A stretch of 44,868 nt of DNA from the NCBI GenBank assembly GCA_029866215.1, contig JARWZU010000034.1, positions 1 to 44,868 on the forward strand. The letters run 5' to 3'. A program made the position numbers and the translations under genes. The notes below the pieces were generated by a model that saw only the letters and a program-made list of their open reading frames with translations, had not been told where the DNA came from and did not search any database. Below, piece after piece: positions 3 to 14,756 of the stretch; position 1 is the first letter of the stretch, and each line of letters begins with the position of its first letter. Source of the DNA: Akkermansiaceae bacterium. Its GTDB lineage: Bacteria > Verrucomicrobiota > Verrucomicrobiia > Verrucomicrobiales > Akkermansiaceae.

Positions 3-81
3 GCTGCTAGGAATTTGCTTTCTGCGGGAGGCCCCTGAAAGAGCCATTGGTCCGGGCCGGAGGGCGGGGAAATGGGGGTTG
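3..81 (+). repeat. 79-bp dispersed repeat, copy 1 (subtype A)
   Basis: This is the first of eight same-orientation copies. It begins GCTGCTAGGAATTTGC and ends AAATGGGGGTTG. It is identical over all 79 bases to copies 2, 3, 7 and 8. It contains a GGAGG eight bases before an ATG near its right edge. The bases to copy 2 (82-139) hold a small hairpin (ACACCC/GGGTGT, 99-115) and no gene. Confidence 0.95.
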
Positions 82-218: not shown

Positions 219-280
219 CATATCCGTGGCTCATGATGGCGGCTTGCGCAGCCCTTCATTCCCCATCCACGCAGAGGTGT

Positions 281-302
281 GGCACCCGCTACCGGGAGCG
301 CC
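281..302 (+). repeat. Second short repeat (22 bp), copy 1
   Basis: A 22-base sequence starting GGCACCCGCTACCGG and ending AGCGCC recurs at 1446-1467 with one mismatch. Here it overlaps the stop codon and last codons of the GH43-like gene, so it supplies that gene's terminus. Both copies lie shortly after a 79-bp repeat (62 and 12 bp). No function is recognised. Confidence 0.7.
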
Positions 303-1275
303 GCTCCGGAACAGGGTTAAGGGCTAGGGTGGCGGGTGGCTTGAGGACTGCGGAGGAAATTGAGTTCTGATCCCACGTTTCTGCTCGCGCCGCCCCATAG
401 AACAGCCGCCAGGACTTCCCGTCGATGAGGAGAAACGGCGTGACATGGCCGTGGGGCGACTCGTCGTCCTTTGGATGGAGCAGGCCCTCACCCTTCCAGC
501 CGATCCCGTCCTTGCTACTGGCCCATCGGGTGCCATCGCGCGACTCGATGACCATCACGAAAACCTCTCCTACCCTTGAAACGTGAATGCCCCCCGCATC
601 ATCCCCGAAAACGGGCTCCTGACGCCTCTTCCACTTCAATCCATCGGTTGATGTGGCATATCCCACGAAACGCCGCGAACTGTCCGATTTGGGGGCATCA
701 CGATCCGGGGCGCTCGGTGGCAAGTCCTTGCGCCCGTCATACCAGAGGTGGAAGCGCTCCCCATCGTGGGAAACACTCGGACGCCCCACCAAAAGGGAGT
801 CCCAGGCAGGTGCGGGTGAAGCTGAAAACACCGCTCCCCGGTCGTTCCATATCCGTCCGTCAGCGGAGGTTGCCAACCCGATGGCATCGGTGACGCCGGA
901 CCCGGCCAATGTGTAAAACATGAAAAGCCCGCCGGCTACGGCAATGACGGACGGATCGTTCACATGGTTGACTCCCTCGGGAGCGAAGACGACGCCTGCC
1001 TGCTTCCAATCCTCTCCGTCTTTTGATGTGGCGAGGTGGATTCGATCATGCCCGTCTTTGCCCTGCCCGCCGAAGAACATCAGGAATTCTCCCCGGTGCT
1101 TGAGAATCTCGGGAGCATACAGGTTGCCGCGGCCGTGGGGAGCTGCGGTTGACTCCGCGAATGAGGAAATCACCCTCTCGTCGGCATGGATTGTGCCGGC
1201 GAACGAGAGTGCGAGACACAGTGCCGGGAATACGGGGCTCATCGATTTTTTGAGAGAACGATTTAAGCCACCCAC
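289..1275 (-). CDS. Secreted GH43/GH32-like five-bladed beta-propeller protein
   Basis: The 328-residue protein has a signal peptide (positively charged start, hydrophobic stretch ALCLALSFAGTIHA) followed by repeated blade motifs of the type 'IHLATSKDGEDWK', 'IGLATSADGRIWN' and 'VGYATSTDGLKW'. These are typical of GH43/GH32/GH117/GH130-type five-bladed propellers acting on plant or algal glycans. Substrate cannot be told from sequence. The start is a GTG at 1275. The internal ATG at 1242 would give a signal peptide without positive charge, so GTG is preferred. The gene lies alone between 79-bp repeat copies 2 and 3, and its stop codon falls inside a second short repeat. The last blade appears complete, so the gene is probably intact. 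Confidence 0.75.
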   Translation of the reverse strand: MGGLNRSLKKSMSPVFPALCLALSFAGTIHADERVISSFAESTAAPHGRGNLYAPEILKHRGEFLMFFGGQGKDGHDRIHLATSKDGEDWKQAGVVFAPEGVNHVNDPSVIAVAGGLFMFYTLAGSGVTDAIGLATSADGRIWNDRGAVFSASPAPAWDSLLVGRPSVSHDGERFHLWYDGRKDLPPSAPDRDAPKSDSSRRFVGYATSTDGLKWKRRQEPVFGDDAGGIHVSRVGEVFVMVIESRDGTRWASSKDGIGWKGEGLLHPKDDESPHGHVTPFLLIDGKSWRLFYGAARAETWDQNSISSAVLKPPATLALNPVPERRSR

Positions 1276-1354
1276 ATCATGGACGGGAGGCAGTGAACGA
1301 CGGGGGAATCATACAAACTGCCGCCCTTGTCGATTCCAAACAGCAGCGTCTGTT

Positions 1355-1433
1355 GCTGCTAGGAATTTGCTTTCTGCGGGAGGCCCCTGAAAGAGCCATT
1401 GGTCCGGGCCGGAGGGCGGGGAAATGGGGGTTG
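1355..1433 (+). repeat. 79-bp dispersed repeat, copy 3 (subtype A)
   Basis: It is identical to copies 1, 2, 7 and 8. It lies about 80 bp upstream of the GH43-like start codon, in what should be that gene's promoter region. The 140 bp to copy 4 hold the second copy of the 22-bp repeat and a small inverted repeat (ACTCGCG/CGCGAGT near 1509-1529). I see no gene there. Confidence 0.95.
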
Positions 1434-1445
1434 GTCCGGGGCGCT

Positions 1446-1467
1446 GGCACCCGCTACCGGCAGCGCC
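1446..1467 (+). repeat. Second short repeat (22 bp), copy 2
   Basis: It matches 281-302 at 21 of 22 positions. Here it is extended to the left by GGCGCTG, which pairs with the CAGCGCC at its end, so it can fold as a hairpin with a 7-bp stem. Confidence 0.7.
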
Positions 1468-1573
1468 AGTCCGCTTCACGTAAAGGGGTTCTCATCACGG
1501 TTCAATCTCCGACTCGCGGCGGGGTCGCGAGTTGTCCAGCCCGCGCCTTCGCCTCGTTTCGTCCCGCCGTTTA

Positions 1574-1652
1574 GCTGCTAGGAATTTGCTTTGTGCGGGA
1601 GGCCCCTGAAAGAGCCATTGGGTCGGATCGGAGGGCGGGGAAATGGGGGTTG
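1574..1652 (+). repeat. 79-bp dispersed repeat, copy 4 (subtype B)
   Basis: It differs from subtype A at five positions: CTTTGT for CTTTCT, and GGGTCGGATCGG for GGTCCGGGCCGG in the core. It is identical to copy 5, and the two flank the PEP-CTERM gene as a direct repeat 2.5 kb apart. Confidence 0.95.
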
Positions 1653-1658
1653 TTAAAA

Positions 1659-1697
1659 GCACCCGATCCTCTTCACCGAGGATCGGGTGTTTTTTTG
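1659..1697 (+). terminator. Rho-independent terminator with no gene in front
   Basis: A perfect 11-bp stem (ACCCGATCCTC / GAGGATCGGGT) with a 6-base loop is followed by G and seven T. It points rightwards on the plus strand. It begins only 8 bp after repeat copy 4, and no plus-strand gene precedes it. It is probably the tail of a gene whose body was replaced by the repeat. The rest of 1653-1957 is an AT-rich leader for the PEP-CTERM gene in which I could not place a convincing promoter. Confidence 0.85.
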
Positions 1698-1957
1698 TGT
1701 CTATTTTGAGCAACGCGATTGGGTGAAATTCACCGCTGGATCGGTGCAGTCAAAAACCCGAAAACATTGCGTTCAAGAACTCCCAAAATGCCAGCGCTCA
1801 AGTGCGGTAATTTTCAGCCTGTTCCACCGTAGGCACGGGCGTCGGAAAGCAACGAAATTGTTACACAAGAAAAATATCCTCAAGAGAATTTTAGTCAAAG
1901 TATGCCATCGAATTTGTCACCAAAATCTTAATTTACCATCTCCTCACCTCCTCAAAA

Positions 1958-4072
1958 ATGAAACTTTCCCCATCCACTCTCCATTTCTGCTTGGCTTCTA
2001 TCAGAAACAAAAAACTTGCGATCGCAACATTCTCCACTCTTTTGTTAGCGGGGGCAAGCGCTCAGGCGCAGACTTCTTATACAGGGACGGCTTCCACAGG
2101 TACCTGGAATTCTAGTCGTTGGAACAACTCAGCCGACGCTTCTCCCTACACCTCGGCCTGGATAGCAAATGACGCAGCATCATTCGCAGCTGGCGCCTAC
2201 ACGTTCACTACCGCTGCCACGTCAGGTGTTACCGTCAATGTCGGGAATATTACTTTAGCCAGCGGCGCAACTGTTAATTTCTCAGGGGCATTGGGTACTT
2301 TTGGAACGGGTGGAGCTGTCAGGACTCTGGACATTGGAACGGGATCTCTTCTTAATTTTGGTACACAAGCCGCGTCAACGGCAGCTGGGACCGGATTCAT
2401 CAAGAACGGTGCAGGTGTTCTAGCCACAGCAGGAGCGGGATACTCGGGGGGATTTACCTTGAATGCCGGAACAGTCATCATGCGTGGCGTTGATGCCATG
2501 GGTGGGAGCGCGTCTAACGTGCTCACTCTCAATGGCGGAACTGTCGCCTCTAATGCCAGCCGTGCAATGGCAAATACCAAATATGGTGGTGGTATCGTCA
2601 TCGGTGGGAACGTGCAGTTTGGTGAGCTTGCAACTGTTAATACACTTGCTAGCAGCACAGCCAACCTGTCGTTTGCGAACAATGTTTCCCTTGGAAGTGC
2701 TGCGAGAACTTTCACCGGAGGAAACAGTGGAACGCAGACATTCAGCGGAGTCATTTCCAACACCGGATCGGGCGGCATCACTTTCGCCGCCAACGCGAAC
2801 ACTGATGGCCGGTTTGAAATTACCAACGCAGCCAACACCCTCACTGGTCCAATCAACATCACTGCCGGTGAAGTGCGCTTCACGGCGGACGGAAGCATGG
2901 GCGCCGCGGCGAATGACATCATCCTCGATGGCGGGCGGTTTGGTAAGGCGAGTGATGCCAATACGGTTACACTCGGGGCTGAAAGGGACATTTTTGTTGG
3001 AGACGGTCTGGGAACTTCAATCAGCTCTGCAGGCACGGGCATTCTGATCTATAACAAAGCCATCGCGAACAAAAGTGGTGAAACTGGTTCTTGGGCTAAG
3101 CAAGGTGGCGGGACCCTCTCCCTCGGCGGCGTGAGCACCTACAGCGGTGATACCGCGATCAACAACGGTATCCTCCTGCTCACCACCGGTAACGACCGCC
3201 TTCCCACCGGAACCGTCGTTTCCCTAGGCCAAGCAGCCAGCGCCAACGTCGGTACTCTCAATCTTAATGGTCTTAACCAGCAGATTGCAGGATTAGCATC
3301 GACCACTGGAATTAATTCATCTGCTAACAAGAACACGGTGACATCGACAGCGACCGCCACTCTCGATATCAATGTGGCTGCGGGAGCGACAAGCTCGTAC
3401 GGAGCAGGCACAGCGGCGAATTCTGGAGCGATCACGGGCGCTATTTCTCTCAATAAGAGTGGACTTGGAACTCAAATACTCGGCGACACCAACACCTACA
3501 CCGGCGCCACCACCGTCGATGCGGGAAAATTAGTGATCAACGGTAGTATTTCCACTAGCACCACCACTGTGAACAGCACCGGTACACTGGCTGGCTCAGG
3601 CACGGTCGGAGCGGTCACTGTCAAGGACGGAGGATTTATCGCCCCCGGTAACAGCCCAGGAATTCTTAACACGGGCAATATTACCCTAGAAGCGGGTTCC
3701 TCCCTCGGCATCGAGATCGACGGGGCAACCGTCGGTACCCAATACGACCGACTCAATGTCACCGGCTCTGTGAGTCTCGCGGGCTTAGTCTCGATGACGC
3801 TGAGCGACAGCTACGCTCCCGCGAATGGAACTTTGTTCTTCATCCTCGCCAACGACGGCGCAGATGCAATCACCGGCACCTTCAGCAATGCATCCGTGAA
3901 TGGTGGCACCTACACCTTCGGCAGTCAGCAGTTCCAAATCAGTTACGCGGGTAACACTGCTACTAGCACCTTTACGGGTGGCAACGACGTCGTGCTCCAA
4001 GCCGTGCCCGAGCCCGCCTCTCTCCTGCTAGGAGCTGTGGCCATTCTCACACTGCTGCGCCGCCGTCGCTAA
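1958..4072 (+). CDS. PEP-CTERM protein with autotransporter-associated beta-strand repeats
   Basis: The 704-residue exported protein has an N-terminal signal peptide (ATFSTLLLAGASAQA). It has a long Gly/Ala/Thr/Asn-rich body carrying autotransporter-associated beta-strand repeats, for example 'NGAGVLATAGAGYSGGFTLNAGTV', 'QGGGTLSLGGVSTYSGDTAI' and 'KSGLGTQILGDTNTYTGATT'. It ends in a PEP-CTERM sorting tag: VPEP, a hydrophobic helix and an RRRR tail. There is no outer-membrane barrel, so the repeats probably form a beta-helix on a protein processed by an exosortase-type system rather than a true autotransporter. No exosortase gene is in the window. No Shine-Dalgarno is visible before the ATG. 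The gene stands alone between identical repeat copies 4 and 5. Confidence 0.9.
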   Translation: MKLSPSTLHFCLASIRNKKLAIATFSTLLLAGASAQAQTSYTGTASTGTWNSSRWNNSADASPYTSAWIANDAASFAAGAYTFTTAATSGVTVNVGNITLASGATVNFSGALGTFGTGGAVRTLDIGTGSLLNFGTQAASTAAGTGFIKNGAGVLATAGAGYSGGFTLNAGTVIMRGVDAMGGSASNVLTLNGGTVASNASRAMANTKYGGGIVIGGNVQFGELATVNTLASSTANLSFANNVSLGSAARTFTGGNSGTQTFSGVISNTGSGGITFAANANTDGRFEITNAANTLTGPINITAGEVRFTADGSMGAAANDIILDGGRFGKASDANTVTLGAERDIFVGDGLGTSISSAGTGILIYNKAIANKSGETGSWAKQGGGTLSLGGVSTYSGDTAINNGILLLTTGNDRLPTGTVVSLGQAASANVGTLNLNGLNQQIAGLASTTGINSSANKNTVTSTATATLDINVAAGATSSYGAGTAANSGAITGAISLNKSGLGTQILGDTNTYTGATTVDAGKLVINGSISTSTTTVNSTGTLAGSGTVGAVTVKDGGFIAPGNSPGILNTGNITLEAGSSLGIEIDGATVGTQYDRLNVTGSVSLAGLVSMTLSDSYAPANGTLFFILANDGADAITGTFSNASVNGGTYTFGSQQFQISYAGNTATSTFTGGNDVVLQAVPEPASLLLGAVAILTLLRRRR

Positions 4073-4119
4073 ATTTTCTCCCTAGGTTATCGCACGATTG
4101 CATTTGGCGAATCACTTCG

Positions 4120-4198
4120 GCTGCTAGGAATTTGCTTTGTGCGGGAGGCCCCTGAAAGAGCCATTGGGTCGGATCGGAGGGCGGGGAAATGGGGGTTG
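4120..4198 (+). repeat. 79-bp dispersed repeat, copy 5 (subtype B)
   Basis: It is identical to copy 4. It begins 47 bp after the PEP-CTERM stop codon. The 51 bp after it (4199-4249) recur after copy 8 (10770-10820) at 50 of 51 positions, so these two copies share a longer 130-bp block. Confidence 0.95.
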
Positions 4199-4249
4199 CG
4201 GGGGAAAAGGGGACGGAAGAGGTGTTTCGGTGCTTCGGGTAACGGTGTT

Positions 4250-4328
4250 GCTGCTAGGAATTTGCTTTCTGCGGGAGGCCCCTGAAAGAGCCATTGGGAC
4301 GGACCGGAGGGCGAGGAAATGGGGGTTG
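4250..4328 (+). repeat. 79-bp dispersed repeat, copy 6 (subtype C)
   Basis: It differs from subtype A at four positions (core GGGACGGACCGG, and GCGAGG for GCGGGG). Its left edge interrupts the flank that copies 5 and 8 share. Its right edge interrupts an oxidoreductase gene in mid-codon sequence. Confidence 0.95.
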
Positions 4329-4578
4329 TCGCGGCTTTCTCGGCTCGTTCGGGAATGATGTCACAACAAGCCACCAACTCGACATGGGGCGAAGCGACCA
4401 GCGTCGGAAAATAGCTGCCCGAAACATTGCCACAGCCGATCACTGCCACCCGGACCTTGCGGCCTTGAATCAGCCCCGCGGCAACAGGCTGTGCTTGAGC
4501 GGATGAAATGTTGTTTGTTGGTAGGACAGCGACAGCGACTCCGGCGGCAAGGGTGTTTTTAATGAAATCGCGGCGCAT
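4329..4578 (-). pseudogene. Gfo/Idh/MocA oxidoreductase, N-terminal fragment with Tat signal
   Basis: About 83 residues remain of a family that is usually 350-450 long. They start MRRDFIKNTLAAGVAVAV, a twin-arginine export signal. A Rossmann segment follows, 'VRVAVIGCGNVSGSYFP', with the GxGxxxG-type NAD(P)-binding loop, then the first helix and second strand ('VELVACCDI'). Reading on the minus strand, the coding sequence runs straight into repeat copy 6 after 'ERAEKAA', and the frame then continues into repeat-encoded nonsense. An alternative ATG lies at 4599. The fragment shows no internal stops or frameshifts, so the break is recent or artificial. Secreted members of this family often act on sugars or cofactors, but the substrate is unknown. 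Confidence 0.8.
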
Positions 4579-4770
4579 GGAAATATCGGGATCGATCATG
4601 GGATTTTTTCTTGATTAATGGTAATATACGGCTCGTCACGGGCAATCTGTCTCGCACGTGAGGGAGATTCCTGGCCATGTTGGTATTTCATCAACAGGGA
4701 AGGTCATTCCGGCTTTGCGGCTTCATCGCGGTGGCCAATCACGCCGGTGCAACCAAGCTTCACCCTGCGC

Positions 4771-5068
4771 TCACAACATCATGATCGGCACTTCCGTCGG
4801 ACCGTCGCCGGAGATATGGAGAACCTTGTTAGCCGCATCGAGGATGACGATCCGGATTTTCTCGAACTGCATTCCTGAAGTAGCCTCCGCGGTAAAGTTC
4901 GCTGAAAAAATGAGTACCAGAGTGACCACATTGACATTCGCGAAGGTTTTGTCGTTGAGTTTGAACTCCTTGTGGAACTGTGCGATGGCGTGATAATCGA
5001 GTCGACTCGAAGGCATGGCATAGCTCTTGAATTGCTTTGTGGCATTCTTCGTAACAAGATCTGCGTAG
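4771..5068 (-). pseudogene. Unknown protein, C-terminal fragment cut by repeat copy 7
   Basis: About 98 residues run from the left edge of repeat copy 7 to a normal stop. They start YADLVTKNATKQFKSYAMP and include a hydrophobic patch 'VVTLVLIFSANFTAEA'. I do not recognise the family. Reading starts inside the repeat in an open frame, so any apparent start is repeat-derived. Composition looks like real coding sequence with no decay. The 192 bp between this fragment and the oxidoreductase fragment (4579-4770) hold no gene that I can support. Confidence 0.5.
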
Positions 5069-5147
5069 GCTGCTAGGAATTTGCTTTCTGCGGGAGGCCC
5101 CTGAAAGAGCCATTGGTCCGGGCCGGAGGGCGGGGAAATGGGGGTTG
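5069..5147 (+). repeat. 79-bp dispersed repeat, copy 7 (subtype A)
   Basis: It is identical to copies 1, 2, 3 and 8. It separates two divergently reading C-terminal gene fragments. Its internal ATG at 5138, with GGAGG at 5125-5129, is in frame with the guanylate kinase fragment to its right. Confidence 0.95.
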
Positions 5148-5455
5148 ACATCGTGATGGATCTCGATGTTCAAGGCGCAGCCCAAGTGCGTGCCTGCACA
5201 GATGCGGAGATCCGCCTCGCCGCTGTCGATCTCTTCGTCATGCCTCGCAATGAGGAAGAGCTTCTCGCCCGCCTCTCCGGCCGCGGCACCGATAGCGAGG
5301 AAGTCATCGCCCTGCGCATGAAAAATGCCCTCGGGGAAATGAGCCACTGGCCGGAATACACCTACCGCCTCCTCTCCGGCGACCGCGAGGAGGACTTCTC
5401 CCGCTTCAAGTCCCTCGTCATCGCCGAGCGCATGCGCGTCTGCCGCCTCCTCTAA
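5138..5455 (+). pseudogene. gmk: Guanylate kinase, C-terminal fragment fused to a repeat-borne start codon
   Basis: The gmk-derived part starts at 5148 and gives about 100 residues. Guanylate kinase landmarks are clear: 'DLDVQGAAQVR', 'LLARLSGRGTDSEEVI', 'MSHWPEYTYRL' and the end 'ERMRVCRLL'. The P-loop and GMP-binding N-terminal half (about 90 residues) is missing, so it cannot act as GMP kinase. An ATG inside repeat copy 7, preceded at 8 bp by GGAGG, opens an in-frame reading 'MGVDIVMDLDVQG', so a truncated protein could be made. gmk is normally essential, so a full copy should exist elsewhere. No decay is visible in the fragment. Confidence 0.8.
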
Positions 5456-5601
5456 GCATTTCAGGATCATAGGAGCCTCAAGCTCACCGGACAATGCAAA
5501 GGCGGCATTGTCGCTGCCTCCTGCCGAAATTTTGCCCTTCCCGTAACCCAGCGGGTGGATAGGCTAAAACGCATGATGATTTGTAAATTTTGGCGCAATA
5601 T

Positions 5602-5688
5602 GGAGAAGGGTTTTGCAACCCCTTTCACAACCCGAGCCGATACACAATAAGACCAGTCCTCCGTAAAGGGATTGCAAATCCCTTCTCC
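5602..5688. repeat. Inverted repeat, 24-bp arms, in an intergenic gap
   Basis: The left arm 5602-5625 (GGAGAAGGGTTTTGCAACCC...) and the right arm 5665-5688 (...GGGATTGCAAATCCCTTCTCC) match as inverted copies with two mismatches, around a 39-bp spacer. Each arm is itself nearly palindromic around TTGCAA. It lies between the gmk fragment and the 3' end of the export operon. It could be a small MITE/REP-like element or a bidirectional terminator. The rest of 5456-5725 shows no gene. Confidence 0.75.
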
Positions 5689-5725
5689 TTAATAGCTCTA
5701 CGCTTTGATAAGCTCGCCGTCGCGG

Positions 5726-6256
5726 CTACGGCTTCGTGACTTGGATCACTTTCGCATTCACTACGAGATTCTCCGCCGTCGAGCTTTGATCCACCGTACC
5801 GCTTACGGTGACGGCGCTGAGTTCCTTGAGGCCTTTCACTCCTTTGAGGCCACCGCTTAGGACTTTGCCTTCCGCATCGATGATTTGGATGGAGGCGATC
5901 CCTTCGCGCTTCGCTTCTTTGGAATCGCAGCAGCAGTCCCATGGAGTTTCACATTCGTCGCCAGGCATCTCGTTGCAGGGGGTGAGTTTTTCGCGGTCGC
6001 CGAGGAGAAAGGAGGCGCGGCCATCGACGAAAACTTTTCCGCGACCCATGATGAGACCGTGGATGACGATTTCGTCTCCAGGTTTCGCATCGGTGTGGGC
6101 TAGGTGGATCGCTTGCGGATCGGCGATGGGTTGGTCGGTGAAATGGGCATCGAACGCGGCGGCGGGCGGGGCGTTTTCGACGGCGGCGGTGGTTTCCTTT
6201 TTCTCGCAGGAAACGAGAGCGAGGACGGCGATGGCGAGCAGGTATTTGGTTTTCAT
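5726..6256 (-). CDS. Cys-rich lipoprotein at the end of an ABC export operon
   Basis: The 176-residue protein has a lipoprotein signal (LLAIAVLALVSC, lipid-modified Cys17). A strand-rich domain 'GDEIVIHGLIMGRGKVFVDGRASFLLGD' follows, resembling an OB fold. It is interrupted by a dense cysteine cluster, 'PCNEMPGDECETPWDCCCDS' (Cys94, 102, 108-110), then a second strand pair ending 'VTVSGTVDQSS'. From memory, similar 'PC..PGD.C.TPWD.CC' proteins occur next to MacB-like transporters in planctomycetes and verrucomicrobia; no function is established. The cysteines suggest metal binding or disulfides. It starts 4 bp after the upstream permease stop, so it is the last gene of the operon. Confidence 0.8.
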   Translation of the reverse strand: MKTKYLLAIAVLALVSCEKKETTAAVENAPPAAAFDAHFTDQPIADPQAIHLAHTDAKPGDEIVIHGLIMGRGKVFVDGRASFLLGDREKLTPCNEMPGDECETPWDCCCDSKEAKREGIASIQIIDAEGKVLSGGLKGVKGLKELSAVTVSGTVDQSSTAENLVVNAKVIQVTKP

Positions 6257-6260
6257 AGTT

Positions 6261-7409
6261 TTATGATCTGAGAGCTTTGGGAAGGGGCGGGCGGAGGCAG
6301 CGGATGGCGGGCGGCACGGCTCCGAGAATTCCTAATAGAATCCCGGTGACTAGCCCAGCGAGCGCCACTTGCGGTGTAACAGAAACCGTGAAGGCACCGA
6401 TGGAAAATGGAATCGTGCGACCATCGAGCAGAAATAATGCGACGGCGGAGGCGACCAATGTCCCGGCAAGGCAGGCGATTAGGCTTTCTTGGACGAGGCT
6501 GAGAAAAATCGCACCGCGCCCGAAACCAATGGCTTGAAGGGTGGCGAGTTCGCGGATGCGGGAGGCGAAGGCGGCGTAGAGCGTGTTGAATCCTCCAAAA
6601 ACCGCACCTGCCGCGATGAGGCCGGCGGTGATCCATGTCATCACGCGGAGAGGTTTAAAGAAGGAACTGAGCGCCGCGTAGTAATCGCTTTCACGCAGCG
6701 CGGTCAGCTCCAAATCGAGCCGCTGCTGGGCGAAAAGATCGGCATCGGGAAAATCTGCCGCCCTGGCCATGCGCAGGACGACACAGGAAACGGTCTGGCG
6801 CTGGGCGAGCATGTGGAGATCACCAAGGGCGGCCCAGACCTCGGACTCCATCACGGTGCCAGGCGCGGCGAATACGCCGGAGACGATCATCGGCGAGCGA
6901 TCGATGGTGACGGACGCGCCGGGTTTCAGGGAAGCCTCGGGAATGCCGAGCTTGCGCCATGCGAGCCTGCCTACCATTACCTCGCCGGAACGCGGGAACT
7001 CTCCTTCTAACAACCGCACCTCGGGATGCACGAGCAGCGCGCGCGGCGTAACTCCGCGGAACAGCCCCTGCCCTTTCCGACCCTCCTTGTCCGTCAGGTA
7101 GGACATGTAATGAATCTCCACCGAGGCGGCAGGGCGACCGAGAGTTTTGGTAACGCCTAGCACACCCGCCTCCGCAATGCCGCCGAGCAACGGGCTGACC
7201 TCGCTGCGCTGGATACTTTCCTCGCTGCCTGCGCCGAGTAGGATCACATTTTTCTCCGAACCCGATGCGGAAAGAACCTGCTTCATCCCGCCGTTGAGCG
7301 CGGTGGCAGCGATCACCAGCAATACCACCAACGCAGAGCCGCCAACCGTCTGCGCGAGGCGGGGCTTGTCGCGGAAGAGATTCCGCAGGGCGTAGGTTAG
7401 AGGGAGCAT
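6261..7409 (-). CDS. FtsX/MacB-type ABC permease (second of two)
   Basis: The 382-residue integral membrane protein begins MLPLTYALRNLFRDKPRLA. One N-terminal helix is followed by a large periplasmic MacB-like domain and three C-terminal helices containing the FtsX-type segment 'SRIRELATLQAIGFGRGAIF'. That segment is the cytoplasmic loop contacting the ATPase. The architecture fits type VII ABC exporters (MacB/LolCDE family), which use a mechanical stroke in the periplasm rather than pumping through the membrane. The gene follows the first permease after 93 bp. That gap carries a TTTAAAG tandem repeat that could fold, so expression of the last two genes may differ from the first three. Confidence 0.88.
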   Translation of the reverse strand: MLPLTYALRNLFRDKPRLAQTVGGSALVVLLVIAATALNGGMKQVLSASGSEKNVILLGAGSEESIQRSEVSPLLGGIAEAGVLGVTKTLGRPAASVEIHYMSYLTDKEGRKGQGLFRGVTPRALLVHPEVRLLEGEFPRSGEVMVGRLAWRKLGIPEASLKPGASVTIDRSPMIVSGVFAAPGTVMESEVWAALGDLHMLAQRQTVSCVVLRMARAADFPDADLFAQQRLDLELTALRESDYYAALSSFFKPLRVMTWITAGLIAAGAVFGGFNTLYAAFASRIRELATLQAIGFGRGAIFLSLVQESLIACLAGTLVASAVALFLLDGRTIPFSIGAFTVSVTPQVALAGLVTGILLGILGAVPPAIRCLRPPLPKALRS

Positions 7410-7504
7410 GAAACTTTAAATTTTAAACCCTAATTAAGAGTCGTTGTTAGATGCGCTTGGGTCTTTCTCTTCCTTGAGATTTAAAGTTTAAAGTTTAAAG
7501 TTTC
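7410..7504. repeat. Inverted and tandem AT-rich repeat between the two permease genes
   Basis: GAAACTTTAAA at 7410-7420 is mirrored by TTTAAAGTTTC at 7494-7504. The right side also contains three tandem TTTAAAG units (7480-7500). It fills the only real gap in the operon. It may form an mRNA hairpin that attenuates or protects the transcript. Confidence 0.7.
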
Positions 7505-8642
7505 AGGAACGCAGCGACTTCACGATGGGTTGGCGGATGGCAACGAGTGCGGGATGAATCGATGCGATGACCCCGAGGACGAGGGCAGCTACCGATGCGA
7601 AAATGGCGGTGGAGATTTCCGGGAGAATGGCGAGGGTGTGGCCTTCGCTACCCATGGTGAAACTCTGCCAGCGCAGGAATCCCCAAGCGAGGCCGGCACC
7701 GAAGACGCCGCCCGCGAGACCTAACAAGCCGCCTTCGCTAACGACGAGAAACATGATCGCGCGTGCCGGATATCCGAGGGTGCGGAGCACAGCATTTTCC
7801 TTCACGCGACTGCGTACCATCAGCAAAATCGCGTTAGCTACAAGCGCGACCACCGCGATTACTGCACCGAGACCAAGCCAGCGAGTGAAGCCGATTAGTT
7901 CAATGAGCTGTCCGGCAGTTTCCGCGAAGAAAGCTTTTTCAGGTTTCGTGTTTGTCGGGAGTTGGTCGGATTTGAAACGCGCGTCGATGGCGGCGGCGAC
8001 GGGCTTCAGATCGGCGGAGCGGTGAACGCGGACGTTGAACTGCGTGACCACGCCCAGCCCGGTGCGCGAGGCTTGCTGGAGAAAGGGTAGCTTCACGTAG
8101 GCAACGTTGTTATCCTGCGCAAAGGGCGAGCGGATAATTCCCGCGACATGCACGGTGATGCCCACAGCATCGAATTTATCGCCGGGTTTCAGGCCCCGTC
8201 GTTTCGCGAACTGCTCACCGAGCAGCGCACCATCGTCGCGCCGCGTCCACTCCGCATCGTCGCCCGCGATGATCTCAATCTCTGGTGCGAATTTCCGCAG
8301 CATCCCCTCCGGCACGCCGCGAAACGTGATCACATCGAGGCTAGCTCCGCAGTTATTTACAATGATCTGGATGGGGATCACCTCGCGCACACCGGGCATG
8401 CGGCGGATCTCATCCTGATAATGCTCGGGCAAGCGACTTGTCGCCGGGCAGAAGCGATTCTCTCGATATACTACGAGCGTAGTATCAGCGGCGGTCTCTT
8501 CCGTCGCCGCGCCAAGTGAACTCTGCAGCGTTTCCACCGAGGTAAAAAGAAACATGCCGGAGGCGACTCCGAGCACCGTCAGAGCTGTCCGCAGCCGGTG
8601 ACGTAGAAGTTGTTTCAGGGCGAGGGAAAGTAGGGCGGTCAT
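7503..8642 (-). CDS. FtsX/MacB-type ABC permease (first of two)
   Basis: The 379-residue protein begins [21 protein letters not shown]. It has an N-terminal helix, a periplasmic domain including '[20 protein letters not shown]', and a C-terminal three-helix FtsX core with '[20 protein letters not shown]'. The pairing with a second permease and a LolD/MacB-type ATPase predicts a heterodimeric transmembrane unit. Its ATG overlaps the ATPase stop codon (ATGA at 8639-8642), so the two are translationally coupled. The cysteines in the periplasmic domain are of interest because the operon also encodes a Cys-rich lipoprotein. Confidence 0.88.
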
Positions 8643-9328
8643 GCGCGTGCGAGGTTGGGATCTTCGGAAAGCAAAACGCCTTTCTCAAGGTGCAGCGTGC
8701 GGTGTGCAGCGGCGGCGGCGCGGGCATCATGTGTGACCATCACGATGGTTTTTCCACACTCACCAGAAAGCGATTGGAGCAGCGAAAGGATGCTGTTGGC
8801 GGACTCGCGGTCGAGGTCGCCGGTCGGTTCGTCGGCCACAAGCAGAGGCGGATCAGCGACCAGCGCACGGGCGATGGCTACCCGCTGCTCCTGCCCGCCG
8901 GAAAGCTCGGCCGGCGTGTGATGTGATCTATCCATGAGGCCGACGAGATCCAGCGCCTCCTCCACTTTTGCCCTGCGCTCGGCGCGGCTGATCGGCGTTA
9001 TAAGCAGGGGTAGTTCGACGTTTTCAAAAGCGGTTAGAACCGGGATGAGATGGTAGAGCTGGAAGATGTAGCCGACCTTTTGTGAGCGCCATTTTGTGAG
9101 CTGCTTTCTGGAGAAATCGGCGATGTTCTGGCCGTCGATCACGAGCGTGCCGGAAGACGGCGTATCGATGCCGGAAATGAGGTTGAGCAGCGTGGTTTTT
9201 CCCGAACCGGACGGCCCCATCAGCGCGAGGAACTCGCCGCGCGGGACTTCAAGGTTGAGGTTTTCCAGCGGGGTCACGACGTTTGCGCCCTTGCGGTAGG
9301 ATTTGCTAATGGATTTGCAGGAGATCAT
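8639..9328 (-). CDS. ABC exporter ATPase, LolD/MacB type
   Basis: The 229-residue ATPase carries all expected motifs: Walker A 'GPSGSGKTT', Q-loop 'IFQLYHLIP', signature '[15 protein letters not shown]', Walker B '[12 protein letters not shown]' and switch histidine 'VTHD'. The ATG at 9328 ([14 protein letters not shown]) was chosen over an upstream in-frame start inside the adaptor gene because it matches the family length and overlaps the adaptor stop as ATGA. The 'PTGDLD' form is typical of MacB/LolD/FtsE ATPases. It drives the two permeases encoded immediately downstream. Confidence 0.93.
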
Positions 9329-10683
9329 GGCTGTTCGGTGACGCGGGGTTTGAGGCGCTGGCCTTCGCGCAGGTCTGAGGGATCGGCGATGACCCACTCG
9401 CCGGGGCGAATCCCGGAATCGACGCGGATCAGGCCTTCTGAAACTTCTGAGGAAACAACATCGCGGCGTTCAGCGCGGAGCGAATCCACATCGCAGATCC
9501 AAGCCGTGCCATCGCGGAGGGCAGTGGCAGGGACATAGACAGCGACACCCATCGCACTTGCCACAACGGATGCGGCGCGCGGGGCCTCGAGGAATTCCAC
9601 GCGGCAGAGCATTTCCGGGCGGAGCTTTTCACTGGGTGCAGCGATGCGGACTTTTGCTTGAAGAGTGTTGCGCTGAAGATCTGCTGCGCCCTCGATGCGG
9701 GTGACAATTCCTTCAAAAACCTCGTCCGGCAAAAGGTTGCAGCGGATGCGGGCAGGTTGGCCAACGCTCAATCCAGCAGCATCCGCCAGCGGCACATCGA
9801 CTCGGACTTGCAGGTGCGCGGGATCGTATAGGATCGCGATGGTGGAGCTGTCCTCCTCGTCCATGCCAACCATCTTCTTCGCGCCCGGAGCGGCTTTGAG
9901 TGAAAGGATGCGCCCGTCCGCCGGCGCGTGGATGCGCGTGCGGCGGTGTGCTAGTTCCGCTTTATCAAGATCCAGCTCCGCGCCCTTTATCTGCGCCTGG
10001 ATGGCAAGGATTTCGTAAGCGATCTGGGTCAACTCCTCCGCGATCTCGCCGATGCGCGCCTTCGCGAGATCGACCTCGGCGAGCCTGCGTCGGTGGTTAA
10101 GTCTCACGGTGAGCCGCTCGTCGCCGGTGATCGCGCCCTTCGAGAGATCGCCATATCGACCCAACTTGTCAGCGGCCTCCTCGGCGTTCGCCTCCGCCAC
10201 TTCGAGCATCGCTTTCTCCGCGTCCATTTTGCGGATCGCAATTTGCGTTCCGACGCAATGCGCGCTGAAGGAGGCTTTCATATCGGCCAGCTTCGCGGCC
10301 ATCGCGTCGCGCTCTATGCGGGTGTCTTCGTCAATCAGAGTGGCAAGCAGGTCGCCCTTTTTCACCAAGGCACCTTCAAGCACATGCACCTCGTTGACGA
10401 TGCCGTCGGTGAGCGCGGTGGCCTTGGTCGGCAGTGGATCCGGCTCCACCCAGCCGGATGCTTGGAAGAGAATTTTACCCGTGGCTTTCGTGGTCTCCGT
10501 CGCAACAATGGTTTCCTCGATGCCGACCGCCGGGACGACATCCACCGCCTTGCCTGGCAGCAGGCGGTCGCGGAAAAGCAGGGCGAAAAGCAGCGCGAAG
10601 CCGAGGAAGATTCCGAGCGGCAAGAGCCATACGCCGAGCCTGCGTTTGGCGGGTCGAGAGAATGGTGGTTGTTGAGTAGGCAT
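9325..10683 (-). CDS. HlyD/MacA-type periplasmic adaptor of the ABC exporter
   Basis: The 452-residue membrane fusion protein starts MPTQQPPFSR. It has one N-terminal helix (VWLLPLGIFLGFALLFALLF), a first biotinyl-lipoyl half ('GIVNEVHVLEGALVKKGDLLATLID'), a long alpha-helical coiled-coil hairpin (about residues 130-270), the second lipoyl half ('IHAPADGRILSLKAAPGAKK') and C-terminal beta domains. It bridges the permease complex to an outer-membrane or periplasmic partner. No TolC-like gene is in the window. It is the first gene of the operon. Its ATG lies only 7 bp from repeat copy 8, so the natural leader and promoter are absent at this position. The frame stays open upstream through the repeat, but those codons are repeat-derived. 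Confidence 0.88.
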   Translation of the reverse strand: MPTQQPPFSRPAKRRLGVWLLPLGIFLGFALLFALLFRDRLLPGKAVDVVPAVGIEETIVATETTKATGKILFQASGWVEPDPLPTKATALTDGIVNEVHVLEGALVKKGDLLATLIDEDTRIERDAMAAKLADMKASFSAHCVGTQIAIRKMDAEKAMLEVAEANAEEAADKLGRYGDLSKGAITGDERLTVRLNHRRRLAEVDLAKARIGEIAEELTQIAYEILAIQAQIKGAELDLDKAELAHRRTRIHAPADGRILSLKAAPGAKKMVGMDEEDSSTIAILYDPAHLQVRVDVPLADAAGLSVGQPARIRCNLLPDEVFEGIVTRIEGAADLQRNTLQAKVRIAAPSEKLRPEMLCRVEFLEAPRAASVVASAMGVAVYVPATALRDGTAWICDVDSLRAERRDVVSSEVSEGLIRVDSGIRPGEWVIADPSDLREGQRLKPRVTEQP

Positions 10684-10690
10684 GGTGGTT

Positions 10691-10769
10691 GCTGCTAGGA
10701 ATTTGCTTTCTGCGGGAGGCCCCTGAAAGAGCCATTGGTCCGGGCCGGAGGGCGGGGAAATGGGGGTTG
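10691..10769 (+). repeat. 79-bp dispersed repeat, copy 8 (subtype A)
   Basis: It is identical to copies 1, 2, 3 and 7. It directly abuts the start of the export operon on its left. The next 51 bp (10770-10820) match the flank of copy 5. With copy 7 it brackets the gmk fragment and the whole operon. Confidence 0.95.
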
Positions 10770-10820
10770 CGGGGGAAAAGGGGACGGAAGAAGTGTTTCG
10801 GTGCTTCGGGTAACGGTGTT
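10770..10820 (+). repeat. 51-bp repeat-associated flank, second copy
   Basis: It matches 4199-4249 at 50 of 51 positions. It contains two GTGTTTCGG-type motifs (GTGTTTCGGTGCTTCGGG, then GGTGTTTCGG spilling past its end). At copy 5 the match is cut off by copy 6. Here it continues toward the IS91 3' end, so it may belong to a larger element. Confidence 0.8.
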
Positions 10821-10984
10821 TCGGTAAGAAAAAGTCTAAGTCCACAACGGTAATCGGAGGACTCGGGAGATTTCACGGCGGTTTTCATTCGCCGCGAGCG
10901 TAGCCTTCCAAACCGCTGTGCCAAGATTTCTTTTGGCGACGGTTTTTTGGATTGGAAAACAGGCGGGACGCCCGTGCCCCTTTC
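10821..10984 (-). other. Probable 3' (origin-side) flank of the IS91-family element
   Basis: This stretch lies downstream of the transposase stop codon and holds no gene. It contains GC-rich palindromes, for example GGCGGGACGCCCGTGCC near 10961-10980 and GGCG/CGCC near 10874-10892. IS91-type elements carry their replication origin on this side, but the exact end cannot be fixed from sequence alone. Confidence 0.35.
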
Positions 10985-12493
10985 TTAGGTGGATTCGAGA
11001 ACCAGGGTGCTGCCGTCGTCGAGTTGGATTTCCTCGGGTTCCCATGTGGGCCTTTGGTCGAATCCGTCGGAATCGGGATTTGAAGGATTCCGGGGACAGT
11101 TGAACCAATCGAGATCAGGCTCTTCGTCGGGGATCCATTCCTTGATCGCCTGCCAAGGTGGTTCGATGGGCTCCATGGTGTGGATGTCGAAGGGCGGAGG
11201 CGGCGGGCGCGGGAGCGTGACGATTCCCTCCCAGAGGCCGTGGAGGCGGAGAAAAAATTCAATTTCCTCGCGGCGGATGACTTTGCGGACGGGTTTCATG
11301 GTGCCCTTGCAGCAGGTGCACTGGAGCGGGTCGCCGCCCCAAACCTGGAGGATGAGGTCGCGCCAGAGGGGGCGCATGTCGCGGGCGGATTGTTTCGGTG
11401 GTGCGGGGATGAGGAGGATCTGGGCGGGCGGCGGTTTTTCGGGCAGAGGCTCGGGTTTGGGTAGTCGGATGATACGGTCGGGGATGAGCGGGGTTTGGCC
11501 GCGGGTTTTGTTGGAGTAGGTTCCGTAGTAGCGGACCGTTTGCTGGCCTTTGGGCGGGAGGTGAAGCAGCGCTGCGGCGATGAAGTCGGGGGCTTTGAAG
11601 ATCTCGAAGTTGCGCTTGGTGGTGTGGTGTCGCTTGGACCGGTAAATGACGGTCTGGGTGCTGGCGTTCCAGGTGATTTTCTGGAGGGAAAAGGGATGGC
11701 GCAAAAGATACTCGGCGAGGCGTTTGCGGCCGGCGCTGTCGTGGGCGGCGACGGTTTTTTCGCCGCCGTCGTGGATGTGAAAGCCGGAATGTTTCCAGGA
11801 GAGCATGTCGGCGAGTTTGCCGGGGCTGATGAGCTTGGCTTCGCGCAGGGCGTGGAGGAAACGGTGACGGAAGAGTTCAATGGCAGGCGCGAGGTCTTCA
11901 GCGGGCATGCAGTGGAAGCGGCCGTCGGGGGTGAAGAGGCCGTCGGCGGCGAGGACGTGGAGGTGGGGGTGGAAGATGAGGTAGTCGCCGAAGGTGTGGA
12001 CGGCGGCGATGGCTCCGAGTTTGCCGTCGGGGAGATCGAGGCGAGTGCGGAAGGCGTCGCGGAGGGTTTCGGTGGCGGTGTGGAAGAGATGGGCTAGGAG
12101 CTGGCGGCGTTTGCGGAAGATGCCGCGTAGGACTTTGGGAATGGTGAAGACAAATTGGCGGTGCGGGACTTCGTGGCAAACGGCGGTGGCGATCCAGTCG
12201 CTGGTGGAGCGGACGCGGCGCTGGTGACAGGATGGACAAAAGTGGCGGCCCTTGCAGGTGAAGGCGAGGAGGCGTTCGTGGCCGCACTCGGGGCACTGGA
12301 GGCGGGTGAAGCCTGAGGCGAGGTCGCCACAACGGAGGAAGGATTCGACGGTGGTAGTGGCTGCGTGGTGGAGCGGGCCGAGATCGTTGCGGTGTTTGCT
12401 TTCGTAGTTGGCAAGGAATTCGTCCCAGCCGTGGTGGACGAGTTGCCAGAGTGGCGAGGCGCGGGGGCGGCGGGGCTGGTAAATGGAGGGCAC
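10985..12493 (-). CDS. IS91-family HUH transposase
   Basis: The 502-residue transposase has an N-terminal zinc-binding domain (CPEC at 67-70, CPSCH at 86-90). It has the HUH metal-binding motif 'FHPHLHVLAADG' (His residues near 175-179) and the tyrosine region 'LAEYLLRHPFSLQKI' (Tyr262). The second tyrosine found in classical IS91 (YxxxY) is His here, as in single-tyrosine members. A C-terminal CxxC pair follows ('LQCTCCKGTMKPV'). Such enzymes move by rolling-circle transfer without target duplication and can carry neighbouring DNA through one-ended events. The reading frame is intact. It lies between repeat copy 8 and the integrase module. Confidence 0.9.
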   Translation of the reverse strand: MPSIYQPRRPRASPLWQLVHHGWDEFLANYESKHRNDLGPLHHAATTTVESFLRCGDLASGFTRLQCPECGHERLLAFTCKGRHFCPSCHQRRVRSTSDWIATAVCHEVPHRQFVFTIPKVLRGIFRKRRQLLAHLFHTATETLRDAFRTRLDLPDGKLGAIAAVHTFGDYLIFHPHLHVLAADGLFTPDGRFHCMPAEDLAPAIELFRHRFLHALREAKLISPGKLADMLSWKHSGFHIHDGGEKTVAAHDSAGRKRLAEYLLRHPFSLQKITWNASTQTVIYRSKRHHTTKRNFEIFKAPDFIAAALLHLPPKGQQTVRYYGTYSNKTRGQTPLIPDRIIRLPKPEPLPEKPPPAQILLIPAPPKQSARDMRPLWRDLILQVWGGDPLQCTCCKGTMKPVRKVIRREEIEFFLRLHGLWEGIVTLPRPPPPPFDIHTMEPIEPPWQAIKEWIPDEEPDLDWFNCPRNPSNPDSDGFDQRPTWEPEEIQLDDGSTLVLEST

Positions 12494-12778
12494 AAAGAGT
12501 GTTCATAAGAACATTTTTTGTGCGGGGCAAGATTTCGGGTGATGGATCGGTTTTGTGGAAGATCAGAGTGTGTGTATTTACGATGGGAGATTCGGACCTT
12601 GAGCGAGAGCGTCCGACTGAATGGCGGAAAACGAGCGGTAACTGATGAATGAATGGCGCAGCACGTTGCGGGGCCATTCCATTTTGAGGGCGCGGGCCAG
12701 TGCGCGCTCTTCGCGGTGCATTTAAGCGTGGCGGACGAGCCGAGTGGCTGGAATACACCACCCGGCAACTCATAATGG
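12494..12778 (-). other. Non-coding 5' flank of the IS91 element
   Basis: These 285 bp separate the transposase start from the excisionase-like gene. I see no convincing open frame or RNA gene. One terminus of the IS91 element should lie here, but no clear terminal repeat is visible, as is usual for this family. Confidence 0.3.
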
Positions 12779-13048
12779 CTACGCTCGGGCGTCCACCTGA
12801 TAATGCTTCTTCAGTGCGGCCAGCACCGCCTCAAACTCAAACAGGTAGAACCGCGGAGTGATTTGGATGTAGGCGATCACTCTTTTGGCGACCCAGGTAT
12901 CGATGGATCGAGTGCTCACCGACAGGCGCTTTGCCAGTTCCTTCTTCTTGATCAGGGTTGGATGATTGAAGCCCGAGCTTCCACCTCCTTCGAGCGGTTG
13001 GCTTGTGTTGGAGGTCCGGGCGGGATGTTTGAGGATTGTGGCTTTCAT
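12779..13048 (-). CDS. Excisionase-like helix-turn-helix protein
   Basis: The 89-residue protein carries a MerR/excisionase-type winged helix-turn-helix: 'LIKKKELAKRLSVSTRSIDTWVAKRVI', then 'TPRFYLFEFEAVLAAL' as the wing and following helix. Such proteins bend att-site DNA and set the direction of integrase reactions, or act as regulators. Its ATG overlaps the integrase stop as ATGA (13045-13048), so it is translated with the integrase. The first ~25 residues are low-complexity and may not all belong to the folded part. Confidence 0.75.
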   Translation of the reverse strand: MKATILKHPARTSNTSQPLEGGGSSGFNHPTLIKKKELAKRLSVSTRSIDTWVAKRVIAYIQITPRFYLFEFEAVLAALKKHYQVDARA

Positions 13049-14394
13049 GGTTGCGCATCGTTGGCTGTGTCAACGCATGGCTCGTCCTGACGACAGGACA
13101 GGCGCTCCAATCGCTGTTTGATCGACCATTTGAGTTCCGGAGGCACCCATCCTTCAGGCGGCCGGATCGACCACCACGCCTTCGCCGCCTCGCCGTCCAC
13201 GATCTCGCGGTAGTGGCGGAAGATCATTTTCGGGGAGTTACCAGCCTCCAGAGAGGTCCGTGCTACGTCGCCGGTCTCCGCTACCCGATAGCTGATGAAC
13301 GAGTGTCTGAGGGCATTCTGACGCCATCCGCCGGGAATCTTGGCTTTCACGGCAGTATCGCTCAGAGCGCCTGAGTAGTCGGTGATGGAGATGATCTTGC
13401 CAGTCTCGCCGCGCCAGGGGGCAAGCCATGCTTTCAGGTTGTCCGATAGCGGAACGAGTCGCCGCGCTGCTGTCTTCGCTTTCTTGCCTGCGATTTCGAT
13501 GTGGCCGCGATCCCACTTGATGTCTTGCCAGTTGAGGCGACATACCTCGGCTGATCGGATGCCGGCGAATCCACCAATGGCGATGAGCGGCAGGATGCGG
13601 GCGTGGGCGGTGAGCAGGAGACTCTGCATTTCCTCCGGAGTGAAAATCTTGATCTCGGTTTCCGGCTCCTTGTACAATTCGGTTTGCTCGGCAGCCGTCT
13701 TGCGGTCGGGATGGAGGTATCCCTGTTTTTTGGCAAACACGAACAGGGTGACGATGTTGCGGCGGATTCCGTTTTTGCTAACAGGGCCGAGCTTCTTGAG
13801 TCCATCGAGAAACCGGTTGATGTCGGCCACCGTGACGTCTGCGATATTCCCGGCCACCGCCTCCGTGAACCGCTTCAGGCTGGCGGTCGCGTTCCGGACA
13901 TAGATGTCGCTTACGCCTTTGCGCTTGAGCGACACGGAGAACTCAGCGGCGGCTTGGACATTGCTGCGAGAGGGGAACAGGTCAGCACGGTTTGCCGCGT
14001 AGAAGCGGACGGCATCCGAAAGCGGGACGTTGCCGGCAGTGCGCCGGGCGCTCGCCCATTCCTCGATGGCCGCCGCCAGCGTCACTCCGAATTCCGTGGC
14101 GGTGCGCTCGCAGTGGCGAAGGATGTCGAGGTCCCGGCGGGTCGCCTCGCAGGTATCGGTGAAACCATTGATGAGCCGAACGGTCACCTGCTGGGCGATC
14201 ATCCTGGCCTCGTCCATGCAGGATAAGCAGCGGGTCCGTCGGCTGCCGCCCTCCTTCCATGCGAGGGTGAACTGCTCGTATCCATCCTTTCGGTTGATCG
14301 TGTAGATCCGGACCTTGGTCGGACCTGTTCCAATTTCCACGATTGCACTGCGGCGTTTGCGTTTCTGGGTCATCGAACCCGGCTTCCGCGTCAA
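13045..14394 (-). CDS. Tyrosine recombinase/integrase beside tRNA-Ser
   Basis: The 449-residue protein has a SAM-like core-binding domain ('LSDAVRFYAANRADLF' through 'DINRFLDGLKKLG') and a C-terminal catalytic domain. The first catalytic Arg is in 'GGFAGIRSAEVCRL', the Lys in 'EIAGKKAKTAARR', the His-x-x-Arg-like box in 'NALRHSFISYRV' and the nucleophilic Tyr in 'FRHYREIV'. The usual second His before the Tyr ('LGH') appears as Asn ('EAGNSPKM'), a tolerated variation. A start at ATG 14373 is also possible. The gene ends about 275 bp from tRNA-Ser, with a duplicated tRNA 3' segment between them. This is the arrangement of a genomic island or of a prophage integrase. Confidence 0.88.
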   Translation of the reverse strand: MTRKPGSMTQKRKRRSAIVEIGTGPTKVRIYTINRKDGYEQFTLAWKEGGSRRTRCLSCMDEARMIAQQVTVRLINGFTDTCEATRRDLDILRHCERTATEFGVTLAAAIEEWASARRTAGNVPLSDAVRFYAANRADLFPSRSNVQAAAEFSVSLKRKGVSDIYVRNATASLKRFTEAVAGNIADVTVADINRFLDGLKKLGPVSKNGIRRNIVTLFVFAKKQGYLHPDRKTAAEQTELYKEPETEIKIFTPEEMQSLLLTAHARILPLIAIGGFAGIRSAEVCRLNWQDIKWDRGHIEIAGKKAKTAARRLVPLSDNLKAWLAPWRGETGKIISITDYSGALSDTAVKAKIPGGWRQNALRHSFISYRVAETGDVARTSLEAGNSPKMIFRHYREIVDGEAAKAWWSIRPPEGWVPPELKWSIKQRLERLSCRQDEPCVDTANDAQP

Positions 14395-14632: not shown

Positions 14633-14672
14633 GCCATGACCCCACCCCCGCGTGCGGGAGTGGGGTCATGGC
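14633..14672. other. Perfect-type hairpin overlapping the tRNA-Ser CCA end
   Basis: Positions 14633-14650 pair with 14655-14672 over 18 bp with one mismatch, around a 4-base loop. On the tRNA strand it begins within the GCCA end and could mark the 3' processing or termination point. It lacks a T run. Confidence 0.65.
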
Positions 14673-14687
14673 GGAGGGGGTGGGATT
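14668..14687 (+). repeat. Probable att site within tRNA-Ser 3' end
   Basis: This is the second copy of the 20-bp direct repeat. It includes the encoded CCA end and the acceptor/T-arm part of tRNA-Ser. A third copy marking the far end of an island was not found to the left within this window. Confidence 0.75.
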
Positions 14688-14756
14688 CGAACCCACGGAA
14701 CCTTTCGGCTCTCCAGTTTTCAAGACTGGCGCAATCGACCACTCTACCACCCCTCC
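14669..14756 (-). tRNA. tRNA-Ser (anticodon TGA)
   Basis: The 88-nt gene has encoded CCA. The acceptor stem GGAGGGG pairs with CCCCTCC. The anticodon stem CCAGT/ACTGG encloses loop CTTGAAA with anticodon TGA. The long class II variable arm (GAGAGCCGAAAGGTTCC) is typical of tRNA-Ser. The T arm is GTGGG-TTCGAAT-CCCAC. It serves as the likely integration site for the adjacent integrase module. Confidence 0.96.

What the first reader, a model, noticed from the sequence alone, without database searches (positions are those of the whole stretch)
4250..5455. Repeat edges cut cleanly through three genes with no decay in the remaining pieces
Copy 6 truncates a Tat-exported Gfo/Idh/MocA oxidoreductase after about 83 residues. 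Copy 7 removes the N-termini of both an unknown protein on its left and guanylate kinase on its right. All three fragments are free of stops and frameshifts. Either recombination between repeats recently rearranged the chromosome, or the contig was mis-joined at repeat copies. gmk is normally essential, so the missing half should be found elsewhere.
Basis: partly seen in the sequence, partly recalled or inferred. Interest (0 to 1): 0.7.

Follow-up and report, generated by a model that had tools for sequence, protein, structure and literature searches.

The report
Transposon-end array of captured gene pieces
A 79-base repeat that cuts through genes here is the loose end of a rolling-circle (IS91-type) transposon, and the pieces between its copies closely match intact DNA of different related bacteria, so the cut genes look like imported fragments strung together by a transposon rather than broken resident genes.

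Summary
Eight same-direction copies of a 79-bp repeat lie at 3-10769, and copies 6 and 7 cut three open frames cleanly. The interpretation needs replacing. The repeat is the 3' (ori-side) end of an IS91-family rolling-circle transposon, and copy 8 is the end of a full element (about 10691-12570). In 15 of 17 loci fetched by transposase match, a repeat lies 173-261 bp past the transposase's C-terminal end. It is found in 33 of 35 genomes with the transposase, against 68 of 225 without.

The fragments look imported. Segment 4329-5068 is 86% identical to another genus, where both genes are intact. 5147-10690 is about 98% identical to a congener with an intact gmk, apart from a 148-bp gap. 219-1354 is 99% identical to a third genome. 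These relatives have no repeat at the cut. A complete, divergent gmk is elsewhere in this genome.

Best explanation: repeated one-ended rolling-circle capture beside a resident IS91 copy in a tRNA-Ser island. Recombination between already inserted solo ends is the main rival. Misassembly is not excluded, but cannot alone create repeat edges that the relatives lack.

The parts
3..81 (+). repeat copy 1 (79-bp IS91-type ori end), at the contig start
140..218 (+). repeat copy 2
219..1354 (.). captured segment with a weakly glycosidase-like gene (289-1275 -; best Pfam scores below cut-off); 99% identical to G137:C178:23136-24270
1355..1433 (+). repeat copy 3
1574..1652 (+). repeat copy 4
1653..4119 (.). 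segment with a gene holding passenger-associated (PATR) repeats (1958-4072 +); right part (3524 on) 94-95% identical to G113:C447, which lacks the repeat at the right edge and whose contig ends at 3524; no relative found for the left edge
4120..4198 (+). repeat copy 5
4199..4249 (+). 51 bp continuing the IS91 3' end (98% identical to 10770-10820), so copy 5 is a 130-bp end fragment
4250..4328 (+). repeat copy 6
4329..5068 (.). captured segment: 5' part of a Gfo/Idh/MocA gene (4330-4599 -) and 3' part of a gene of unknown function (4774-5067 -); 86% identical over its whole length to G250:C1:43037-43776
5069..5147 (+). repeat copy 7
5148..10690 (.). captured segment: 3' part of gmk (to 5455 +), then genes that read as a lipoprotein, ABC transporter and membrane fusion protein (named by reading, not scanned); about 98% identical to G165:C17 except 5496-5643, 93-97% to G162:C16, 81% to G119:C5 (these two with a gap after gmk), all ending at 10690
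10691..10769 (+). repeat copy 8, the ori-side end of the full IS91-family element
10691..12570 (-). full IS91-family element; far (ter) end approximate, 12564-12574
10985..12493 (-). IS91-type transposase (Y2_Tnp and Zn_Tnp_IS91); only match in this assembly at E 0.001
13045..14373 (-). tyrosine recombinase (Phage_integrase)
14669..14756 (-). tRNA-Ser (tga), taken as the island's edge

Best explanation
The 79-bp repeat is the 3', origin-side terminus of an IS91-family HUH (rolling-circle) transposon, found here mostly as solo ends. Shown: the repeat is the end of IS91 copies in many genomes; array segments match different species and stop at or within a few bases of the repeat edges, apart from short chance-like similarities; the relatives read have no repeat there. 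Inferred: a solo end inserts at a short T-rich target in a host genome. The transposase, acting in trans, starts rolling-circle copying at its left edge, reads past the short end into neighbouring DNA, stops at a chance terminator-like short sequence, and pastes end plus passenger next to the origin end of a resident copy. Repeating this in DNA moving between related species gives a same-direction array, repeat-fragment-repeat-fragment, leading to the full IS91 at 10691. The cut genes are by-products of where insertion and termination happened. They were not cut in this chromosome.
For: Repeat = IS91 end: copies in other genomes align from the repeat's first bases through the transposase to about 12564-12574. 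Of 17 loci fetched by transposase match, 15 have a repeat 173-261 bp past the transposase's C-terminal end in the same relative orientation; three of these are weak (E 0.007-0.03) and several are partial. Co-occurrence in 260 genomes (repeat at E 0.001, transposase at E 1e-60): 33 of 35 with the transposase against 68 of 225 without, Fisher p 2e-13 (lists). Foreign pieces with edges at the repeat; intact genes in relatives. Target preference: the four bases before CTGC fit NT[TG][GA] in 47 of 96 copies against 6.6% nearby; the motif was chosen after seeing the base counts and the copies are related, so its p 6e-30 overstates. The bases just before the captured stretch in relatives are CTG (G165), CTG (G137), TTT (G250) and ATC (uvrC-like relatives); three of four fit. 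Direction: neighbouring copies within 3 kb are 32 same, 2 opposite, in loci mostly chosen for having several copies. Another array in G162 has a GIY-YIG (uvrC-like) piece starting at a repeat edge. Precedent: in PMC3189936 (passages) 26.3% of IS801 (IS91 family) insertions were right-end fragments of 229, 360 or 679 nt, and about 0.7% of insertions were IS801 that had recruited neighbouring DNA (290, 1017 or 1431 nt). The Helraiser Helitron captures flanks by read-through (PMC4778049, passages).
Against: No relative was found with the repeat inserted at the left edge of a captured segment, the intermediate that the model needs. No empty-site pair for a simple solo insertion was found. PMC3189936 holds that its miniature IS801 pieces came from partial transposition of full elements, not from movement of pre-existing short ones, and that most genomic IS801 fragments come from reorganisations. 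Two of the 17 transposase loci lack the repeat: L196, whose contig ends 218 bp on, and L192 (58% identical transposase). Segment right ends in the window fit the motif loosely: 3 of 7 end GTT before G, the others GTC, TTA, TCG, TAG. The likeness between the repeat's right end and the true ter end is weak. The repeat's first base equals the relative's base at 2 of 4 right edges only. G165 lacks 5496-5643. No movement was observed; this genome and most relatives used are drafts in many contigs.
Confidence: 0.7

Rival explanations
1. Solo IS91 ends inserted independently at many places in several species. Homologous recombination between copies, during DNA uptake or through excised circles, then joined fragments at the shared 79 bp in a cassette-like way.
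For: Copies are up to 100% identical in the window and up to 96% identical to the window's copy in other species, so they could recombine. Tandem copies exist (G170:C98; G000:C67 start). PMC3189936 (abstract passage) concludes that most IS801 fragments in P. syringae genomes probably come from reorganisations.
Against: It needs two insertions per captured segment, one at each edge in the source. The matched relatives have none at the edges that were read: both edges of three segments and the right edge of a fourth. It does not by itself explain array growth beside a full IS91 copy.
Confidence: 0.22
2. Assembly or binning artefact: reads of several species joined at a shared repeat.
For: The contig begins inside a repeat copy, and the assembly is 88 contigs. 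The sources are related species that could live together.
Against: The relatives read have no repeat at the cut sites, so the repeat-fragment edges must exist in some genome. Similar arrays are seen in another assembly (G162: C25, C11), and an IS91-linked copy in a single-contig genome (G118). The repeat is only 79 bp. Estimated contamination of the bin is 0.34%.
Confidence: 0.07
3. Integron-like cassette array with the repeat as an attC site.
For: Same-direction repeats separate gene pieces, and a tyrosine recombinase lies nearby.
Against: No attC core motif at the ends by inspection and no folding beyond shuffles. Some genes between repeats are cut. The repeat is an IS91 end.
Confidence: 0.01

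Closest known systems
IS801 / IS91 one-ended transposition (Pseudomonas syringae; PMC3189936)
   Same: Transposase family; fragments of the ori-side end move alone; neighbouring host DNA is recruited; short target and terminator motif.
   Different: Here a 79-bp end recurs, matched in 101 of 260 genomes of a family, and stands between fragments from several species in one array. Movement is not shown.
ISCR elements and complex class 1 integrons (recalled; only a search listing seen)
   Same: IS91 relatives with tandem element-plus-passenger units gathered from different sources.
   Different: ISCR units carry a whole transposase gene and mostly whole resistance genes (recalled). Here the unit is a 79-bp end, and the passengers are ordinary chromosomal genes, some truncated.
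Eukaryotic Helitrons (Helraiser; PMC4778049)
   Same: HUH rolling-circle elements; capture of gene fragments by read-through; short non-autonomous copies (abstracts).
   Different: Bacterial IS91 transposase; no helicase domain was matched in the window's transposase.

Membership tests
IS91 family (full element at 10691-12570) | HUH Y2-type transposase with IS91 zinc-binding domain | tested here: met
   PF04986 88.1 bits and PF14319 65.2 bits, both over cut-off
IS91 family (full element at 10691-12570) | no terminal inverted repeats | tested here: met
   of 4 inverted pairs of 12 bases or more found in 10660-12620, none is at the two ends
IS91 family (full element at 10691-12570) | conserved origin end downstream of the transposase gene | tested here: met
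   15 of 17 loci fetched by transposase, 173-261 bp past the C-terminal end, three of them weak
IS91 family (full element at 10691-12570) | insertion beside GAAC/CAAG-like tetranucleotide | tested here: inconclusive
   NT[TG][GA] before CTGC in 47 of 96 copies; includes CTTG = CAAG on the other strand but is looser. The IS801 targets GAAC, GGAC, CAAG, CGAC are from PMC3189936
IS91 family (full element at 10691-12570) | no target duplication on insertion (recalled) | tested here: inconclusive
   no empty site of a simple insertion was found
IS91 family (full element at 10691-12570) | rolling-circle transposition | not testable with these tools
   needs an experiment
Integron attC array | attC core sites and foldable hairpin (core motif recalled) | tested here: not met
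   two copies folded on both strands as DNA, no better than shuffles: z -0.09, -0.39, 0.98, 1.66; ends do not match RYYYAAC/GTTRRRY by inspection
REP/MITE-type palindromic repeat | palindrome or terminal inverted repeats | tested here: not met
   same four folds, no terminal pairing
Helitron | Rep-helicase protein | tested here: not met
   only Y2_Tnp and Zn_Tnp_IS91 matched

The most novel reading that the evidence does not exclude
Across one bacterial family, 79-bp solo ends of an IS91 element, served in trans by rare full copies, work as a gene-fragment capture and shuffling system. It builds same-direction arrays of DNA from several species at the origin end of a resident copy in tRNA islands: a rolling-circle counterpart of an integron that needs neither integrase nor attC.
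Probability: 0.35. Interest if true: 0.8.

Novelty: new variant of a known kind. Interest (0 to 1): 0.6.

Why it matters
PMC4778049 (passage) says that evidence for a transduction mechanism by bacterial IS91-like elements remains circumstantial. Here several junctions in one contig can be read against intact relatives, which shows transposon-end edges and fragments resembling at least three different species side by side. If confirmed by reads and an assay, it would show bacterial gene fragments being gathered across species much as Helitrons do it in eukaryotes. It would also explain apparently broken essential genes in draft genomes.

Tried and rejected
Rfam scan of 1-16000 at gathering thresholds: only a tRNA. 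Folding of two repeat copies as DNA, both strands: nothing above shuffles. An attC or REP-type element was rejected on that ground, and a known structured RNA on both. NCBIfam scans were abandoned after two coordinate errors. Pfam on ten open frames beside repeats in other genomes (10 of 20 frames located): 5 of 10 gave a family, and one (GIY-YIG piece, L080) is clearly cut at the repeat edge; the others are not clear cases. For G118 (one contig) the frame beside a solo repeat is an MBOAT_2 protein whose domain lies well inside, so it is no evidence of a cut. No relative was found for the left edge of 1653-4119; the short pieces 82-139 and 1434-1573 were compared only with fetched stretches of this genome. 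An array in G162:C11 was searched in the genus: the flank q1-1018 matches many congeners, the piece between copies 1 and 2 matches G132 and G151 at 77-78% (and others at 67-69%) but not from the repeat edge, matches of the uvrC-like piece start at or next to the end of copy 2, and an integrase piece follows copy 3. Only the best few candidates per genome are scored in the wide searches, so absences there are not firm. Paper searches listed no paper on such arrays in this group, but for five of the eight only the top of the list was seen. Only PMC3189936 and PMC4778049 were opened, as passages.

Full report
What is there. The window is contig C22 of a 3.03-Mb, 88-contig draft genome. Eight copies of a 79-bp repeat, all on the + strand, lie at 3 to 10769. 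The search of this genome listed 17 matches. In a family-wide search 101 of 260 genomes had a match at E 0.001, with at most about three candidates scored per genome.

The cut genes. Copy 6 ends the reading frame of a Gfo/Idh/MocA gene. Copy 7 separates a gene of unknown function, missing its start, from gmk, missing its first half. Pfam sees gmk only from profile position 93 on. A complete gmk is on contig C69, 73% nt and 68% aa identical to the fragment. The fragment is therefore an additional gmk and the cell has not lost gmk.

Where the pieces come from. DNA searches of 260 family genomes found near relatives of the segments. Segment 4329-5068 matches G250 (another genus) at 86% over all 740 bases; there the Gfo/Idh gene (409 aa) and the unknown gene (236 aa) are intact. 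The stretch 5147-10690 matches G165 at about 98% except 5496-5643, which G165 lacks there; G162 at 97% (gmk) and 93-95%; and G119 at 81%, the last two with a gap after gmk. All three stop at 10690. gmk is intact in G165 (198 aa). Segment 219-1354 matches G137 at 99% over all but its first base. The right 617 bases up to 4140 match G113 at 94%. At each edge read base by base, the relative continues with other sequence and has no repeat: both edges in G250, G137, and G165 with G162 and G119; the right edge only in G113, whose contig ends at the other side of the match. Two edges carry small similarities to the repeat inside the relative: GGGAAATGG before the G165 gmk edge, and ATTTGCTTTGT after the G113 edge, which is why that match runs 21 bases into the repeat. 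They may be chance or may have guided the event.

What the repeat is. The window's transposase at 10985-12493 has the IS91 zinc-binding and Y2 transposase domains and is the only match in this assembly. Its element aligns with copies in G094, G119, G118 and others from the repeat's first bases to about 12564-12574. Of 17 loci fetched by transposase match, 15 have a repeat 173-261 bp past the transposase's C-terminal end in the right orientation. Three of the 15 are weak (E 0.007-0.03), some are partial, and six of the 17 hold only a C-terminal part of the transposase. L196 has too little sequence and L192 has no repeat. The 17 are not all such places, and some already showed in the repeat listings. 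In loci fetched mainly by the repeat, which are biased, 24 of 25 rows give 187-254 bp, with places counted more than once; the last row (L056) caught another copy. Genomes with the transposase have the repeat in 33 of 35 cases against 68 of 225 others. The 51 bp after copy 5 continue the IS91 end (98%), so that copy is a longer end fragment.

How copies join. Among 115 non-redundant copies, 97 start at consensus position 1-3 and 77 end at position 78. The four bases ending at position 1 fit NT[TG][GA] in 47 of 96 against 6.6% nearby; the motif was chosen from the same data. Neighbouring copies within 3 kb point the same way in 32 of 34 pairs. In the relatives the three bases just before a captured stretch are CTG, CTG, TTT and ATC; three of four fit the same preference. 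This suits insertion of a solo end at a short target, then capture of the DNA to its right. The right ends of segments fit less well (3 of 7 end GTT).

Mechanism. In the IS801 study, 26.3% of IS801 insertions were right-end fragments and about 0.7% of insertions had recruited neighbouring DNA (PMC3189936, passages). The Helraiser study describes read-through capture for Helitrons and calls the evidence for IS91-like elements circumstantial (PMC4778049, passages). I propose that repeated one-ended rolling-circle events, with the transposase in trans, built the array beside the resident element. The IS801 paper also holds that most genomic IS801 fragments come from reorganisations, which is the main rival here.

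Surroundings. A tyrosine recombinase (13045-14373) and tRNA-Ser lie to the right. G119:C16 has matching IS91, recombinase and tRNA in the same order. The two G162 arrays compared (C25, C11) have a match to the start of the recombinase nearby, C25 also to the tRNA. That arrays tend to sit in such islands rests on these few cases.

Limits. There are no reads, no closed genome of this species, no intermediate state in a relative, and no movement assay.

Noticed in passing
L103, L110, L089, L106, L111, L100 (other genomes): Several repeat copies are interrupted at consensus position 57-58 by CCTGCCTGTCGTAGCC-type DNA, which looks like a second dispersed repeat nested in the first.
   Followed up: partly
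window 274-323 and 1445-1473: Another dispersed sequence (GTGGCACCCGCTACCGGGAGCGCC-like) that matches many family genomes on its own.
   Followed up: no
L163 about 4330-4500 (G137:C178): Tandem repeats of TTGCTTGGGGGTAAATGGTCG type just beyond the right edge of the captured segment in the relative.
   Followed up: no
window 10985-14756: IS91, tyrosine recombinase and tRNA-Ser occur in the same order in G119:C16.
   Followed up: partly
L020 76-217 (G000:C67): Two tandem repeat copies near the start of another contig of this genome; with C22 this makes two contigs whose first bases hold repeat copies.
   Followed up: no
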